From J061 sp003695725 [NCBI: Candidatus Schekmanbacteria bacterium] (lineage in GTDB: Bacteria; Schekmanbacteria; GWA2-38-11), in contig RFHX01000236.1 in the NCBI GenBank assembly GCA_003695725.1, positions 1-13,472 on the forward strand: 13,472 bases of DNA, read 5' to 3'. The first letter of the stretch is position 1; every line of letters begins with the position of its first letter. The notes below the pieces were generated by a model, which saw only the letters and a list, made by a program, of their open reading frames with translations, was not told the origin of the DNA and searched no databases. Both the position numbers and the translations under genes were made by a program. Below are positions 7,945 through 13,407 of this stretch, one piece after another.

Positions 7945-7974
7945 AGAGCAGGCGCTTCGACGCCTGCTCTTTTT
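7945..7974 (+). terminator. Rho-independent terminator between converging genes
   Basis: A 10-bp perfect GC-rich stem, AGAGCAGGCG (7945-7954) with CGCCTGCTCT (7961-7970), closes a CTTCGA loop containing UUCG and is followed by a T run to 7974. It terminates the siroheme-type gene. The converging VWA gene ends on the same T run: its TAA occupies 7975-7973. Its message therefore also reads into the stem, but lacks a proper T tract behind it. Confidence 0.9.
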
Positions 7975-9604
7975 ACCTTACCCTTTTCCTTTTCTTTTCG
8001 ACATAGTCGACAAGGACGTAATGTCCCAAATCGGAAGGGCTTGTGTAAAAAGCGCGTCCTTTGTTGACTTTGGTCATTTTTTGAACAAATGCTTTTAATG
8101 ACGGAGTAGTGTCGAGCATAAAAGTATTTATGGTCAAATCTTTTCTTGTGCATCTGTATACTTCTTTCATCGTTTCCCGGCATGCCCGTGGACTTACTCC
8201 TCCAAATCCTATGGGCCATTCGAACTGAAGCTGGTTATTGTGGAAATAGGCAGTGGGCTGTCCGTCTGTAATGAGAATTATTTGCTGATTCTTTGAACGA
8301 TGTTTAGAGGCAAGGTCAGCTGCAAGCCTCAGTGCATCCTGCAAATTTGTGAAAGCATTGCCTATGTCTTTGCTTCCATCGACAAGCATCAAATGAGCCA
8401 ACTCCTTCTTTGTAATCACCCTTGCCCTTGATGCAAATCCCACGATATAAAAATTATCCTTTGGAAACTTGGTGCTTATCAGATGGTCAAGCGCAATTGC
8501 CACTCTTTTTGCGCTCAAAAATCTTCCGCCCCATGCCATTGAAAAGCTCATATCGATAAGCATTATTGTTGTTGTCTGAGAAGAAAAATCGATGTCATAA
8601 ATTTCAAAATCAGAGGCATCTAATTTGACTTCTTTACCTTTGTTGCCTCTTTTCAAAGAATTCATAAGTGTCGCGCCAATATTTATATTGAAAGGGTCTC
8701 CAAATTGATATTTTTTCACTACATCAGGTTTGATTGTACCCACACCTGAAAGATGAGTCTCATGTGTTCCAAATTGGTCCTTTTTCATATTTGAATAAAT
8801 GCTTTGCAATGCGTTATAGCCAATCCTTCTTATACCCTTTGCAGATATATCGATTTTGTTCCCTTCAACACTGATATATCCGGCTTTTTCTAAGCGCTCA
8901 ACCGTTGTCTGCAAATATTGAAGTATCTTTGCTATATCAGGATCCAAGAAGAAATTTACATCTTCAATATTTATCTGCAGAAAATTTCCATGGAGAATAT
9001 CTTTTTGCAGTTTATCGAGGCGCTTAAACTCTTTCATAACTTCAACTGCTTCATCAAAATTTAGTGGTTTTTCACCGTTGAATTTTTTTCCGTAATCATC
9101 CAAGAATTTTTCCAAATCCCTGAGGTCCTCAAGTTTTCTTAATAGTTTGTCAAACTCCTTTTTTGATTTTTTGCTTACAAAATCGTGATGTTTGAGTGCT
9201 TCGATTTTTTTGCTCAACTTTGGAGGCAGGTTTTTGAGCCAAAATTCTTTCTCTGCCAATTGCCTATCAGCATCCGGTTCGTCCTTAAGCTGTTTTCGAG
9301 TTTCTTTCAACTCCTCATCGATAATTTCATTCAGTTTTTCTTCTATATCATCTAAGGCATAATCCATATTGAACTGATTGAAATATTCATTTTTGAGATT
9401 TTTCAGGTAATCAAGATATTGGTTGATTGACATTAGCTTTATGTTGGGATTCTGCTTCAGATATTCCATTATAAGCCACTGAAGAGCTGCATTCATATCT
9501 CCTTCGCGGAGGAAAAACTCCGAAAGTTTATCGAACAGCTCATCATCATCTAAATCGAGCTTTGCCTGAGTGCCATCCCATTCGGAATATCTATATTTCT
9601 TCAT
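7973..9604 (-). CDS. VWA-domain (MIDAS) protein, partner of the MoxR-type ATPase
   Basis: This 543-aa cytosolic protein has no signal peptide. Its C-terminal von Willebrand A domain spans about residues 340-543. The complete metal-ion-dependent adhesion site is visible: DMSFS at 351-355, a threonine near 419 and TDG at 446-448. The end GRAFYTSP..LGHYVLVDYVEKKRKR is typical of the VWA class paired with Mg-chelatase-like ATPases. The N-terminal 330 residues are rich in charged helices (about 60-205), probably coiled, with a hydrophobic or aromatic patch near 205-245. In characterised systems (Mg-chelatase ChlI/ChlD, MoxR/CoxE) an AAA+ ring and a VWA protein together insert metals or remodel a client. 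Here the client is unknown. The ATG overlaps the stop of the ATPase gene by four bases, so the two are coupled and likely made in fixed ratio. No clear Shine-Dalgarno is present. Confidence 0.9.
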   Translation of the reverse strand: MKKYRYSEWDGTQAKLDLDDDELFDKLSEFFLREGDMNAALQWLIMEYLKQNPNIKLMSINQYLDYLKNLKNEYFNQFNMDYALDDIEEKLNEIIDEELKETRKQLKDEPDADRQLAEKEFWLKNLPPKLSKKIEALKHHDFVSKKSKKEFDKLLRKLEDLRDLEKFLDDYGKKFNGEKPLNFDEAVEVMKEFKRLDKLQKDILHGNFLQINIEDVNFFLDPDIAKILQYLQTTVERLEKAGYISVEGNKIDISAKGIRRIGYNALQSIYSNMKKDQFGTHETHLSGVGTIKPDVVKKYQFGDPFNINIGATLMNSLKRGNKGKEVKLDASDFEIYDIDFSSQTTTIMLIDMSFSMAWGGRFLSAKRVAIALDHLISTKFPKDNFYIVGFASRARVITKKELAHLMLVDGSKDIGNAFTNLQDALRLAADLASKHRSKNQQIILITDGQPTAYFHNNQLQFEWPIGFGGVSPRACRETMKEVYRCTRKDLTINTFMLDTTPSLKAFVQKMTKVNKGRAFYTSPSDLGHYVLVDYVEKKRKRVR

Positions 9605-10995
9605 CTGTAAACTATCCGATTATTGACTTCGTTTTTATTGAGCTTATTGAATAGATGCAGACCCTCAAAAATGAATTCAATTGCTGATGCTATCTGTGCA
9701 GTGCTTTTTGAACCATTAACAAGCTTCATTACATTATCCTTTAAGCCGTCTATTTTTTCAAGACAATCCAAATATTCTTTTGAGGGCATCATATCGGAGA
9801 CTTCTGCAACCCATCCGTTTTTGAAACTTTCAACAACCGGTTGTAGTTTATCAGGAGTAAAATGTCTTTCAAAAACCTTTTTAACTGCTTTGGAAATGAT
9901 TTTATTTACCAACTCTTCCTCTTTTTTGTCTTCACCGGTATATTCAAATTCAATCTTCCCATTAGTCGAAGAGAAGAGGGAATGAAAGTCGCTTAACCTT
10001 GGTACTGTTTCAGATTCTCCGTTTATAATTGCTCTTTTTTCAGCATTGCTGAGCAAGTTTTCATAATTGGCAATAGTCATTCTTACGCTGACACCGGAGC
10101 GTTGGTTTACATCAGGATTTTCTCTTGCGCCCATAGTTATCTCTGCAATTATTTCCTTGATGAAATCAGGTGTATTATCGACAGGCCTATCTGGGAAATT
10201 TGCTTTTTCTTGTTCCATAATGGCTATTTCATCTTCAATGGAAACAGGATAATGAGTCCTTATCTGTGATTCAAAACGGTCTTTCAACGGTGTGATAATT
10301 CTGCCGCGATTGGTATAGTCTTCGGGGTTGGCACTTGCTACGACAAAAATATCAAGAGGCAGACTAACCTTATACCCTTTTATTTGGACATCTCCTTCTT
10401 CCATTATGTTGAAAAGGCCTACTTGAACTTTCTCCTGCAAATCCGGCAATTCATTGATTGCGAAAATGCCTCTATTGGTGCGTGGTATTAACCCGAAGTG
10501 AATTGTCAATTCATCGGATAAATATCTTCCTTCTGCAACCTTGATAGGGTCGATTTCTCCTATTATGTCTGCAATGGAGACATCAGGAGTTGCAAGTTTC
10601 TCTGCATATCTTTTCTCTCTCGGTATCCATTCAATCTCTGTTTTCTCGCCTTCTGCTTTGATTTTTTCTTTGCAGTATTTACAAACAGGATTCAATGGGT
10701 TATCATTGATTTCACATCCCGCAATGGCAGGAATATAAGGGTCAAGCAGATTGACAAGAGACCTAATTATCCTTGTCTTTGCCTGACCTCTTTCTCCCAA
10801 AAGAATTATATGGTGGCCTGAAAGTATGGCATTCTCAATCTGTGGAATAACTGTATTGTCATATCCAATTATCCCCGGGAAAATCTTTTCTTTCTTCTTC
10901 AATTTTTCAATCAAGTTTTGCCGCATCTCAAGCTGTATCGGTTTTGATGTATAGCCGCTTTCTTTAAGCTCTTTGATGTTTTTTGCTTTTTTCAT
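9601..10995 (-). CDS. AAA+ ATPase, MoxR/Mg-chelatase subunit I type
   Basis: This is a helix-2-insert clade AAA+ ATPase, expected to form a ring that works with the VWA protein encoded next. From the ATG chosen here it is 464 aa. Walker A GERGQAKT is at 67-74, Walker B GIFAINEL at 176-183 (with Asn in place of the usual first Asp), sensor 1 ASANP at 220-224, the arginine-finger region R238-R242 (KDRFE), and a sensor-2-like arginine at about 305. C94, C105 and C108 (C-x10-C-x2-C) lie in the segment after Walker A and look like a metal site. I chose ATG at 10995 because GGAGA (11010-11006) lies 10 nt upstream and the conserved region begins soon after. A TTG at 11070 would add 25 poorly conserved-looking residues and lies near the predicted transcription start. 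It forms an operon with the VWA gene. A sigma-54 activator is unlikely, as no GAFTGA motif is seen. Confidence 0.9.
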   Translation of the reverse strand: MKKAKNIKELKESGYTSKPIQLEMRQNLIEKLKKKEKIFPGIIGYDNTVIPQIENAILSGHHIILLGERGQAKTRIIRSLVNLLDPYIPAIAGCEINDNPLNPVCKYCKEKIKAEGEKTEIEWIPREKRYAEKLATPDVSIADIIGEIDPIKVAEGRYLSDELTIHFGLIPRTNRGIFAINELPDLQEKVQVGLFNIMEEGDVQIKGYKVSLPLDIFVVASANPEDYTNRGRIITPLKDRFESQIRTHYPVSIEDEIAIMEQEKANFPDRPVDNTPDFIKEIIAEITMGARENPDVNQRSGVSVRMTIANYENLLSNAEKRAIINGESETVPRLSDFHSLFSSTNGKIEFEYTGEDKKEEELVNKIISKAVKKVFERHFTPDKLQPVVESFKNGWVAEVSDMMPSKEYLDCLEKIDGLKDNVMKLVNGSKSTAQIASAIEFIFEGLHLFNKLNKNEVNNRIVYR

Positions 10996-11089
10996 CTGCA
11001 ATATTTCTCCACTAAAATAATTTTTCAAAAAGTTTTGGTTATTCTCTCCCTGTTGGTACAATGAGTACAATAAACCTCTAATCAGAATA

Positions 11090-11361: not shown

Positions 11362-11958
11362 TCACCTTTCTGTTATTTTCCACATCTTTTCACTGTAGCA
11401 GAAAAATTTTACTGCCAGCGCCACAGCGCAGAGTAGATAGGTGGCCTGTTTAAAAATCTTTTCAATTTTGAATATCAGTGCAGATGCAGGTAAAAACTTT
11501 TCTATCAATAGAAGAGTGAGAAACATTGTAACTGCAAATGGTACACTCTTACCAGTGTAATAGAGAAGTTTGTCGTTTTTGAAAAATTTGAAAGGAGTAA
11601 ATCCTGTAATGAAGAAAAGAAAAATCATAGTAAAGGCAATAAGAAAAAGGGGGTTGATTTTTCCTTCAATGAAGAAATAAAACAAAAGAGAAATTCTGTA
11701 AAAAAAGTCGGCAAGGATGTCCAATTGTTTTCCTGTTTCAGATTCGAGGTTGAATTTTCGCGCAATAAATCCGTCGAATATATCGCTGATTATGATGATT
11801 GAAAAGATGATGAGGATAGATAATCCATAGAATGAGAATGATGATCTTGCTTCTTCATAATAAGTGTTGGCTAATAGAATGAGAAGGGGAGGGGTAAGAA
11901 TAAACCTTATACTTGATGCAAGATTTGGAATATTGAATTCGATCTTTGTGAAGGGTAT
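11362..11958 (-). CDS. CDP-alcohol phosphatidyltransferase, apparent non-ATG start
   Basis: This integral membrane enzyme transfers a phosphatidyl group from a CDP-lipid to an alcohol; the N terminus (NIPNLASSIRF) is most like phosphatidylglycerophosphate synthase (PgsA). The frame contains the complete family motif D-x2-D-G-x2-A-R-x8-G-x3-D-x3-D as SDIFDGFIAR...G...D...D at residues 58-84, and several hydrophobic segments before and after it. At 198 aa the length is normal. The frame is open from the TAA at 11976-11974 but has no ATG, GTG or TTG before a TTG at 11724, which falls inside the catalytic motif and would remove its first half. GGAGGG (11972-11967) is placed for initiation at ATA 11958-11956 (8 nt) or GTT 11961-11959 (5 nt). 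I therefore start it at the ATA. It follows the aldehyde dehydrogenase by 24 nt in the same frame, separated by three stops, and is probably cotranscribed. A base change or read error of ATG to ATA is the main alternative. Confidence 0.8.
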   Translation of the reverse strand: MPFTKIEFNIPNLASSIRFILTPPLLILLANTYYEEARSSFSFYGLSILIIFSIIIISDIFDGFIARKFNLESETGKQLDILADFFYRISLLFYFFIEGKINPLFLIAFTMIFLFFITGFTPFKFFKNDKLLYYTGKSVPFAVTMFLTLLLIEKFLPASALIFKIEKIFKQATYLLCAVALAVKFFCYSEKMWKITER

Positions 11959-11966
11959 AACTCTAT

Positions 11967-11972
11967 CCCTCC
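11967..11972 (-). promoter_or_regulatory. Ribosome binding site that sets the phosphatidyltransferase start
   Basis: GGAGGG on the minus strand lies just after the aldehyde dehydrogenase stop (11985-11983) and 8 nt before the in-frame ATA at 11958. An ATG overlaps it (11974-11972), but that frame stops after three codons. The site argues that translation begins here rather than at the TTG at 11724, which has no such site. Confidence 0.65.
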
Positions 11973-11982
11973 ATTATTATAG

Positions 11983-13407
11983 TCAATATGAAATACTTAC
12001 CATTTTAATATCTGTCATTTCTTCAATTGCATATTTGGGTCCTTCTCTGCCTATGCCACTTGCACGCACACCTCCATATGGCATATGGTCGACACGAAAT
12101 GTGGGGATATCATTTATCATAAGACTTCCTACCTTGTATTCCTTGATTGCCTCGATTGCTCTTTCGATTTTATTTGTGTAAACACCGCCGTTAAGGCCGT
12201 AGATTGAGTCATTCGCCATACTCAATCCTTCATCAAAGCTATCGAAAGGCATTACGGAAACCACAGGAGCAAATATTTCATCTTTTACAACCTTCATTTC
12301 TGCACTTGTATCAGATAAGACTGTTGGTGAAATTATCGCCTTTTTTCTTTCCCCTCCTGTAATCAACTTTGCTCCGCACTTTTTTGCTTCCGAAATCCAA
12401 TCTTCTACTCTTATGGCTTCCTTCTCTTCAATCAGTGGTCCATAGAGCACTTTGTTGTTGAGAGGATTACCAACTTTTATTTTCTTGACTTCATCTTTCA
12501 AGTCGCTGATGAATTTTTTATAAAAAGATTTATGAACATAAATTCTTTGCACAGAAATGCATGTTTGTCCTGAATTATAATATGCTCCTACGATGATTCG
12601 TGGTATTGCTTTTTTGTATTCAACACCTTCATCTATTACCACAGCAGAATTTGACCCAAGTTCAAGGGTTACGAATTTAAGCCCAGATTTTTCCTTGATT
12701 CTTTTTCCAACTTCCATACTTCCAGTAAAAGTGATCATAGAGATTCTTTCATCTTCTACAAGCGGATTTCCGACTCTGCTTCCGCTTCCTGTGACTATAT
12801 TGAGCACTCCAGCCGGAAGCCCCGCCTTCAGCATTATTTCGCCGAGTTTCAATGCTGTAAGGGGAGTAGTTGATGCTGGTTTAAGCACTACACAGTTTCC
12901 CGCGGCAATGGCAGGACCTACCTTATGCGCAACGAGGTTGAGAGGAAAATTGAATGGTGAAATTGCGGCAATAACTCCTTTTGGAAGGCGAATGTAAAAG
13001 CCCAATCTCTTTTCTCCTGCTGATGAAGCATCCATAGGCACTGTTTCGCCGTGAATCCTTTTTGCTTCTTCTGCAGAGAATTTAAATGTATCGATTGACC
13101 TTGCTACTTCAGCCCTTGAATATGTAATTGCCTTACCTGATTCAAGAGATATGGTCCTCGCTATATCATCTGCGTTTTTTGAAATAATCTCTGCTGTCTT
13201 TTCGAGTATCGATGCTCTAATGTGAGCTGGAGTATCTTTGAATTTTTTGAATGTCCTTTCTGCTGTCTCTATTGCTTTTGATACATCTTTACTGTCTCCT
13301 GCAGGTACCGCGGCAAGAAATTTCCCATTATAAGGATTTATAACAGGGAAGGTCTCTTTTTTAGAAATCCATTTATTGCCAATCAACATTTTATTTTTGA
13401 ATGCCAT
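11983..13407 (-). CDS. NAD(P)-dependent aldehyde dehydrogenase
   Basis: This 474-aa cytosolic enzyme of the ALDH superfamily oxidises an aldehyde to the acid. All catalytic landmarks are present: oxyanion Asn153 in SPFNFP (150-155), Lys176 in LKPAS (175-179) for cofactor binding, FTGS at 227-230, general base Glu249 in LELGSN, nucleophile Cys283 in NSGQTC (278-283), and Glu377/Phe379 in DEIFAPV. The ending PYGGVRASGIGREG at 443-456 is typical. The substrate is uncertain. The overall look is of the lactaldehyde / non-phosphorylating glyceraldehyde-3-phosphate / succinate-semialdehyde group, and I would not pick one. The ATG has GGAGG (13419-13415) 7 nt upstream. The phosphatidyltransferase follows 24 nt downstream. 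The 65 nt upstream contain only a weak promoter candidate (TTGCTT, 18 nt, TATATT). Confidence 0.93.
   Translation of the reverse strand: MAFKNKMLIGNKWISKKETFPVINPYNGKFLAAVPAGDSKDVSKAIETAERTFKKFKDTPAHIRASILEKTAEIISKNADDIARTISLESGKAITYSRAEVARSIDTFKFSAEEAKRIHGETVPMDASSAGEKRLGFYIRLPKGVIAAISPFNFPLNLVAHKVGPAIAAGNCVVLKPASTTPLTALKLGEIMLKAGLPAGVLNIVTGSGSRVGNPLVEDERISMITFTGSMEVGKRIKEKSGLKFVTLELGSNSAVVIDEGVEYKKAIPRIIVGAYYNSGQTCISVQRIYVHKSFYKKFISDLKDEVKKIKVGNPLNNKVLYGPLIEEKEAIRVEDWISEAKKCGAKLITGGERKKAIISPTVLSDTSAEMKVVKDEIFAPVVSVMPFDSFDEGLSMANDSIYGLNGGVYTNKIERAIEAIKEYKVGSLMINDIPTFRVDHMPYGGVRASGIGREGPKYAIEEMTDIKMVSISY

What the first reader, a model, noticed from the sequence alone, without database searches (positions are those of the whole stretch)
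11362..11976. Intact phosphatidyltransferase frame with no ATG/GTG/TTG start; AUA initiation or a lost start codon
Reading the minus strand upstream of the TTG at 11724, the frame stays open to a TAA at 11976. It encodes the full CDP-alcohol phosphatidyltransferase motif (D59, D62, G63, A66, R67, G76, D80, D84 counting from ATA 11958) plus a PgsA-like N terminus. No standard start codon exists in that stretch. A GGAGGG at 11972-11967 is correctly spaced for ATA 11958 and acceptable for GTT 11961. Automated callers would give a 120-aa fragment that begins inside the active site. Either this gene uses a rare AUA start (as infC uses AUU to autoregulate), or one base (ATG to ATA) has changed by mutation or assembly error.
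Basis: partly seen in the sequence, partly recalled or inferred. Interest (0 to 1): 0.62.

Follow-up and report, generated by a model that had tools for sequence, protein, structure and literature searches.

The report
Phosphatidyltransferase gene starting at AUA
A membrane-lipid enzyme gene in an uncultured bacterium has no normal start codon and most likely begins at the rare codon AUA, as a few other genes of the same genome appear to do, so it is probably intact but weakly translated and would be cut short by ordinary gene finders.

Summary
On the minus strand the frame 11976-11362 is open, encodes a CDP-alcohol phosphatidyltransferase with the full active-site motif, and has no ATG/GTG/TTG before 11724. 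GGAGGG (11972-11967) is followed 8 nt later by ATA (11958). The other three genomes held of this phylum carry the gene behind the same aldehyde dehydrogenase gene. The nearest (40% identical) starts at GTG, one codon downstream of the ATA position, and shares FTKI after it with synonymous changes, so the start is pinned to within about a codon. infC of this genome also appears to start at ATA, and three more genes (deacetylase ATA, rarA ATT, holA ATT) show the same layout: Shine-Dalgarno, then ATA/ATT, no usual start. All were in the first 420 frames examined; a further 343 gave none. The same scan of 300 kb of E. coli K-12 found only infC (ATT). Best reading: genuine weak AUA initiation, presumably limited by IF3; a known kind (infC; ccpN and citZ of S. 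aureus) in a new gene and lineage. A consensus error or a recent start-codon mutation is not excluded: neither reads nor another genome of the genus could be examined.

The parts
11362..11958 (-). CDP-alcohol phosphatidyltransferase (PgsA-like) coding frame read from ATA, 198 codons plus TGA stop
   Evidence: translation; Pfam PF01066 61 bits; relatives in the same place in 3 of 3 other genomes held of the phylum
11956..11958 (-). proposed start codon ATA
   Evidence: 8 nt after GGAGGG; within one codon of the aligned starts of three orthologues
11967..11972 (-). Shine-Dalgarno sequence GGAGGG
   Evidence: 9 nt from the end of its GGAGG register to ATA, a spacing seen 21 times among SD-to-usual-start pairs in the genome sample, which peak at 5-8
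11959..11961 (-). GTT, alternative non-standard start (less likely)
   Evidence: in frame, 5 nt after GGAGGG; sequence only
11963..11974 (-). ATG GAG GGA TAG: three-codon out-of-frame mini-ORF overlapping the SD; the only ATG between the dehydrogenase stop and the ATA
   Evidence: sequence; no SD of its own
11949..11973 (-). 10-pair hairpin with one bulge that pairs the SD with CCCUUC; third base of ATA is the bulge
   Evidence: -9.6 kcal/mol, z -2.46 in 36 nt and -2.36 in 41 nt, but z -0.43 in a 121-nt context
11707..11784 (-). active-site motif D..DG..AR........G...D...D
   Evidence: present in all four orthologues (alignment)
11722..11724 (-). TTG, first usual start codon in frame; lies inside the active-site motif, so not a credible start
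11983..13407 (-). aldehyde dehydrogenase gene directly upstream (stop TGA 11985-11983), possible translational coupling partner
   Evidence: Pfam Aldedh 541.5 bits; same neighbour in all three relatives
9601..10995 (-). downstream AAA+ ATPase gene; start is probably ATG 10995, not TTG 11070
   Evidence: the G001 orthologue starts at the corresponding ATG
7973..9604 (-). VWA-domain protein gene, next on the same strand
   Evidence: Pfam VWA_2 42.2 bits

Best explanation
The gene is intact and is translated from AUA at 11958. The strong Shine-Dalgarno sequence GGAGGG places the codon in the ribosomal P site, where the ordinary initiator tRNA (anticodon CAU) reads AUA with a third-position mismatch. 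IF3 rejects part of these complexes, so the enzyme is made at a low level that should rise when IF3 is scarce. Ribosomes ending the upstream aldehyde dehydrogenase 24 nt before the AUA may help by opening the hairpin that hides the Shine-Dalgarno sequence. Shown: frame, motif, SD spacing, synteny, conservation of the N-terminal peptide, existence of a normal initiator tRNA arm, four further genes of the genome with the same layout. Inferred: initiation at AUA itself, IF3 sensitivity, coupling, low expression.
For: (1) The gene lies behind the same aldehyde dehydrogenase gene in 3 of 3 other genomes held of the phylum. (2) The G001 orthologue begins GTG TTT ACA AAG ATT (VFTKI) against ATA CCC TTC ACA AAG ATC (IPFTKI) here: FTKI identical with two synonymous changes; over codons 1-78 (73 aligned) positions 1, 2, 3 differ 38, 27 and 49 times and 15 of 30 identical residues use different codons, as in a translated region. 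(3) GGAGGG 8 nt before ATA. (4) infC of this genome reads GGGAGGTGAAAGTT-ATA-AAA, its only usual codon nearby being a GTG inside the SD; read from ATA, its N terminus aligns without gaps to E. coli IF3, which starts at ATT. infC of G001 fits ATC; G002 and G003 fit ATA, or the ATC or ATT next to it. (5) One scan over 763 5'-closed coding frames (121 contigs, 972 kb) gave 10 hits, 5 of them with ATA/ATT 6-9 nt after the SD register and no usual start other than a GTG inside the SD of infC: this gene (ATA), infC (ATA), deacetylase (ATA), rarA (ATT), holA (ATT). E. coli K-12, 244 frames: 1 hit, infC ATT. (6) SD-like motifs deep inside genes have an in-frame ATA/ATT/ATC at 6-9 nt in 160 of 1,659 cases (9.6%). 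(7) An initiator anticodon arm with CAT is present in 4 of 4 genomes. (8) S. aureus infC, ccpN and citZ start at AUA and cvfC1 at AUU; in reporters for ccpN, citZ and cvfC1 these starts gave about 10% of AUG in poor medium, up to 30% for ccpN in rich medium (PMC13009471, passages).
Against: No relative uses ATA for this gene: G001 has GTG, G002 and G003 have ATG. The rarA orthologues read (G001, G003) have ATG, and holA and deacetylase orthologues of G001-G003 have usual codons near the start, so only infC shows a conserved unusual start. All five cases were in the first 420 frames and were known to me before I fixed the scan; the second set of 343 frames (60 contigs, 439 kb) added none. The scan of 297 frames of G001 gave no such gene (its one hit has an ordinary ATG start). 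Spacing 9 is on the shoulder of the distribution. No reads or expression data.
Confidence: 0.66

Rival explanations
1. Sequencing or assembly substitution: the real start codon is a usual one and the consensus of this draft genome is wrong there.
For: Draft genome in 374 contigs; orthologues have usual starts; no read support could be inspected.
Against: It would have to strike start codons repeatedly and end in ATA or ATT each time: among the scan hits without a usual start at the site none shows AAG, ACG, AGG or CTG in place of ATA/ATT. If the originals were ATG, 3 of the 7 one-base changes that give no usual start are ATA/ATC/ATT, so 4 of 4 (without infC) has a probability of about 0.03 (own arithmetic).
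Confidence: 0.14
2. Real but recent start-codon mutation on the way to gene loss: the enzyme is redundant and its start has decayed.
For: The genome has six CDP-OH_P_transf matches, of which this is the fourth best; three other copies carry the full motif (two look PgsA-like and one PssA-like to me, not tested).
Against: The rest of the frame is undamaged, the motif is complete, and the gene persists in synteny in 3 of 3 relatives; AUA behind a strong SD still gives some translation by precedent.
Confidence: 0.09
3. One-base length error or real indel in the G run of the SD: translation starts at ATG 11974, a few codons upstream, which is now out of frame.
For: ATG 11974 is the only ATG between the dehydrogenase stop and the ATA, 8 nt after that stop, and its frame differs from the gene's by one base; G001 likewise starts just after the stop without an SD.
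Against: The properly spaced GGAGGG would be coincidence; ATG 11974 has no SD; it explains none of the other ATA/ATT genes.
Confidence: 0.07
4. Start at another non-standard codon of the same stretch: GTT 11961 or ATC 11943 (the latter would give an E. coli PgsA-like N terminus; recalled).
For: GTT is 5 nt after GGAGGG; the G002 and G003 orthologues start one aligned codon upstream of ATA.
Against: GTT is not known to me as a natural start; ATC 11943 is 23 nt from the SD and would leave conserved FTKI untranslated. The other four genes of the kind have ATA/ATT.
Confidence: 0.04

Closest known systems
infC (IF3): AUU start in E. coli, AUA in S. aureus, ATC in Streptomyces
   Same: Strong SD, AUN start, no usual start codon; infC of this very genome appears to use ATA (PMC13009471 and PMC5472188, passages)
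   Different: infC is autoregulated by its own product; this gene encodes a lipid enzyme and its unusual start is not conserved in the relatives
S. aureus ccpN and citZ (AUA), cvfC1 (AUU)
   Same: Protein genes other than infC with AUA/AUU; reporters gave about 10% of AUG activity in poor medium (PMC13009471, passages)
   Different: Shown there by ribosome profiling and reporters; here only sequence. The citZ case is limited to one strain lineage, like the narrow distribution here
Streptomyces sigR (GTC start, repressed by IF3)
   Same: Unusual start codon, mis-annotated to a usual one nearby (PMC5472188, passages)
   Different: GTC instead of ATA; that paper examined 34 Streptomyces genomes for conservation (passage), here only one genome has the start
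PgsA-type CDP-alcohol phosphatidyltransferases (PF01066)
   Same: Motif and domain coverage
   Different: Divergent copy (62.7 bits against 141 for the best match of the genome); substrate unknown

Membership tests
CDP-alcohol phosphatidyltransferase (PF01066) | Profile match over the curated cut-off | tested here: met
   61 bits against 22
CDP-alcohol phosphatidyltransferase (PF01066) | Motif D..DG..AR........G...D...D (recalled as the family motif) | tested here: met
CDP-alcohol phosphatidyltransferase (PF01066) | Enzyme activity and substrate (glycerol-3-phosphate for PgsA) | not testable with these tools
   none
Genes with genuine AUA/AUU/AUC initiation (infC kind) | No usual start codon at the homologous start | tested here: met
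Genes with genuine AUA/AUU/AUC initiation (infC kind) | Strong SD at working distance | tested here: met
   GGAGGG, 8 nt; spacing table
Genes with genuine AUA/AUU/AUC initiation (infC kind) | Unusual start conserved in relatives (usual supporting evidence, not a strict requirement: S. aureus citZ is lineage-limited) | tested here: not met
   GTG in G001, ATG in G002 and G003; no other genome of the genus held
Genes with genuine AUA/AUU/AUC initiation (infC kind) | Initiation at the codon shown by profiling, peptide or reporter; repression by IF3 | not testable with these tools
   none
Genes with genuine AUA/AUU/AUC initiation (infC kind) | Read support for the codon | not testable with these tools
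   no reads held

The most novel reading that the evidence does not exclude
This lineage uses AUA and AUU starts as a standing, IF3-sensitive class of genes (infC, rarA, holA, a polysaccharide deacetylase, this phosphatidyltransferase and perhaps more in the unsampled 65% of the genome): an IF3 regulon linking DNA repair and replication, envelope and lipid synthesis to initiation-factor supply, missed by gene finders that allow only ATG/GTG/TTG.
Probability: 0.22. Interest if true: 0.62.

Novelty: new member of a known kind. Interest (0 to 1): 0.4.

Why it matters
AUA/AUU starts outside infC are known to me in only a handful of bacterial genes (recalled, and the cases in PMC13009471). A comparison of 36 triplets of annotated genomes counted one AUG-to-AUU switch in 61,358 ancestral AUG starts (PMC5622118, passages), but start prediction leans on ATG, GTG and TTG and misplaces other starts (PMC5472188, passage). 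Five candidates in 763 testable frames of one draft genome suggest that the class may be undercounted, and that it can be looked for by combining SD position, coding signal and orthologue starts.

Tried and rejected
Read-through from the aldehyde dehydrogenase: same frame, but three in-frame stops (TGA 11985, TAA 11979, TAA 11976) separate the two; rejected.

Changed initiator tRNA: one CAT-bearing initiator arm was found in each of the four genomes. The pattern itself asks for CAT, so this shows that a normal arm exists, not that no other does. ARAGORN on 60 contigs found four tRNA genes, none of them for Met or Ile.

Relaxed IF3: aligned with E. coli, IF3 here differs at positions that I recall as linked to start fidelity (131 R to Y, 99 R to K), but G001 has the same residues at these two, so they do not explain a difference between the two genomes; inconclusive.

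SD-hiding hairpin as a regulatory element: significant in short context, not in 121 nt. Of the other four sites, holA and deacetylase show no structure over the SD, rarA a small hairpin over it (z -1.15), and infC was not tested because the stretch folded began after the SD core. Kept only as a possibility. No Rfam match in the window at gathering thresholds. The promoter and terminator scan gave counts close to its shuffles and was not used.

More distant relatives: the scan of genome contigs gave five loci, 28-39% identical over their best segments, in draft genomes of Clostridia, Chlamydiae and Acidobacteria; their starts were not analysed.

Loose SD-anchored count: in-frame ATA/ATT/ATC 8 of 48 codons after 21 orphan SDs against 4 of 96 in the other frames; weak support only, since it contains this gene and known cases, and several of the 21 look like ordinary genes.

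Hits of the scan not counted as unusual starts (G000): L078 (TTG), L185 (ATG) and L179 (GTG) have a usual codon at or overlapping the SD match; L045 has a usual ATG further on (MKIIFMG); L184 rests on a 4-base SD match and may not be a gene. The scan missed E. coli pcnB, which lay in the control stretch and starts at AUU (recalled), so it undercounts.

Literature searches. One search ('AUA initiation codon' with bacteria and Shine-Dalgarno) found no paper. One search used a guessed phylum name and gave nothing useful on it. Papers seen in passages only: PMC13009471, PMC5622118, PMC5472188; all others only in search listings.

Full report
What is there. The minus-strand frame 11976-11362 is open between TAA 11976 and the TGA ending at 11362 and encodes a 198-residue protein counted from ATA 11958. 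It matches CDP-OH_P_transf at 61 bits (cut-off 22) and holds the complete motif D..DG..AR........G...D...D. The first ATG/GTG/TTG in frame is TTG 11724, which lies inside this motif and gives the 120-aa fragment that an ORF lister reports. A stretch of 78 codons without such codons is not rare in this genome (473 of 14,923 sampled stretches); the missing start is what matters.

Where the start should be. The collection holds one genome of this genus, two of the family and four of the whole phylum. The three relatives carry the gene behind the same aldehyde dehydrogenase gene. G001 (40% identical) has GTG immediately after the dehydrogenase stop; G002 and G003 have ATG. In the alignment G001 starts one codon downstream and G002/G003 one codon upstream of the ATA. 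FTKI follows in both the window and G001, with TTC/TTT and ATC/ATT as synonymous differences. Over codons 1-78 (73 aligned) positions 1, 2, 3 differ 38, 27 and 49 times, and 15 of 30 identical residues use different codons. So the region upstream of TTG 11724 is translated, and the start lies at ATA or within about one codon of it. GGAGGG ends 8 nt before ATA.

Does the genome do this elsewhere? infC of this genome reads GGGAGGTGAAAGTT-ATA-AAA; the only usual codon near is a GTG inside the SD itself. Read from ATA, the IF3 N terminus aligns with E. coli IF3 without a gap. infC in G001 fits ATC; in G002 and G003 it fits ATA or the ATC/ATT next to it. I then took 120 further contigs; with the window this is 972,343 of 2,771,721 bases. 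A scan for coding frames with an SD, no usual start before it or within reach of it (other than one overlapping it), at least 18 codons to the next usual start and coding signal in between gave 10 hits among 763 5'-closed frames. Five have ATA or ATT 6-9 nt after the SD register: this gene (ATA), infC (ATA), a DUF3473 polysaccharide deacetylase (L074, ATA), rarA (L062, ATT) and holA (L069, ATT); families by Pfam. Of the other five, four have a usual start in or after the SD match and one is doubtful. The same scan gave 1 hit in 297 frames of G001, an ordinary ATG start, and 1 hit in 244 frames of E. coli K-12, which is infC with its ATT.

How strong is that? Among SD-like motifs deep inside genes 160 of 1,659 (9.6%) have ATA/ATT/ATC in frame at 6-9 nt. 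Four of four by chance, leaving out the gene I was given, would be about 1 in 10,000. This is an indication only: I had seen all of these cases before fixing the scan and the spacing range. The contigs added later were the nearer thing to an independent test, and they gave no further case: 5 of 420 frames in the first 61 contigs, 0 of 343 in the next 60.

How it likely works. A normal initiator tRNA arm reading CAU exists in all four genomes, so AUA would be read with a third-position mismatch, helped by the strong SD and limited by IF3, which represses non-canonical starts (PMC5472188 passages). In S. aureus, infC, ccpN and citZ start at AUA and cvfC1 at AUU; reporters for the last three gave about 10% of AUG expression in poor medium and up to 30% for ccpN in rich medium (PMC13009471 passages). 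The dehydrogenase stop lies 24 nt before the ATA, and a local hairpin pairs the SD with bases right after the start; a terminating ribosome could open it. This part is inference, and the hairpin is not significant in longer context. Low output would fit an accessory enzyme: the genome has six matches to this family and this one is the fourth best.

What remains open. Orthologues of this gene use GTG or ATG; the rarA orthologues that could be read (G001, G003; the G002 locus was not resolved) use ATG; holA and deacetylase orthologues have usual codons near the start. Only infC keeps an unusual start across the phylum. The other four could be lineage-specific switches, or errors, although errors should not choose ATA/ATT each time. 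A length change in the G run would bring ATG 11974 into frame and is the neatest single-site artefact, but it explains only this gene and makes the SD a coincidence. Reads or another genome of the genus would settle it.

Verdict. It is a new member of a known kind; the wider pattern in this genome is the more interesting part and needs an independent test.

Noticed in passing
L059 9145-8570 (-) (same gene as in L087): infC of this genome appears to start at ATA behind GGGAGGTGA; infC in the three relatives fits ATC or ATA.
   Followed up: yes
L062 1397-2791 (+): rarA frame with AAGGAGGT and ATT 9 nt after the SD register, no usual start before the PLAERMRP region; ATG in G001 and G003.
   Followed up: yes
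L069 6808-5705 (-): holA (DNA polymerase III delta) with GAGGT and ATT 9 nt after the SD register; a TTG is available in G001.
   Followed up: yes
L074 2022-2918 (+): Polysaccharide deacetylase (DUF3473) with AGGAG and ATA 6 nt after the SD register; first usual codon is the 64th of the frame.
   Followed up: yes
L136 6694-9084 (+), genome G001: Frame with AAGGAG followed by ATA ATC in frame; its first usual codon is the 53rd of the frame. Possible ATA start in the sister genome; not among the scan's hits.
   Followed up: partly
L031 19762-18800 (-): ATPase-like frame that begins right after a stop codon, close before its P-loop, with no usual start there; looks decayed (own reading).
   Followed up: no
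window 10995-11070 (-): ORF listing extends the AAA+ ATPase gene to TTG 11070; the orthologue in G001 suggests ATG 10995.
   Followed up: partly
window 7973-11070 (-): AAA+ ATPase followed by a VWA-domain protein, a MoxR/VWA-like pair (recalled); the ATPase follows the phosphatidyltransferase in G001 too.
   Followed up: no
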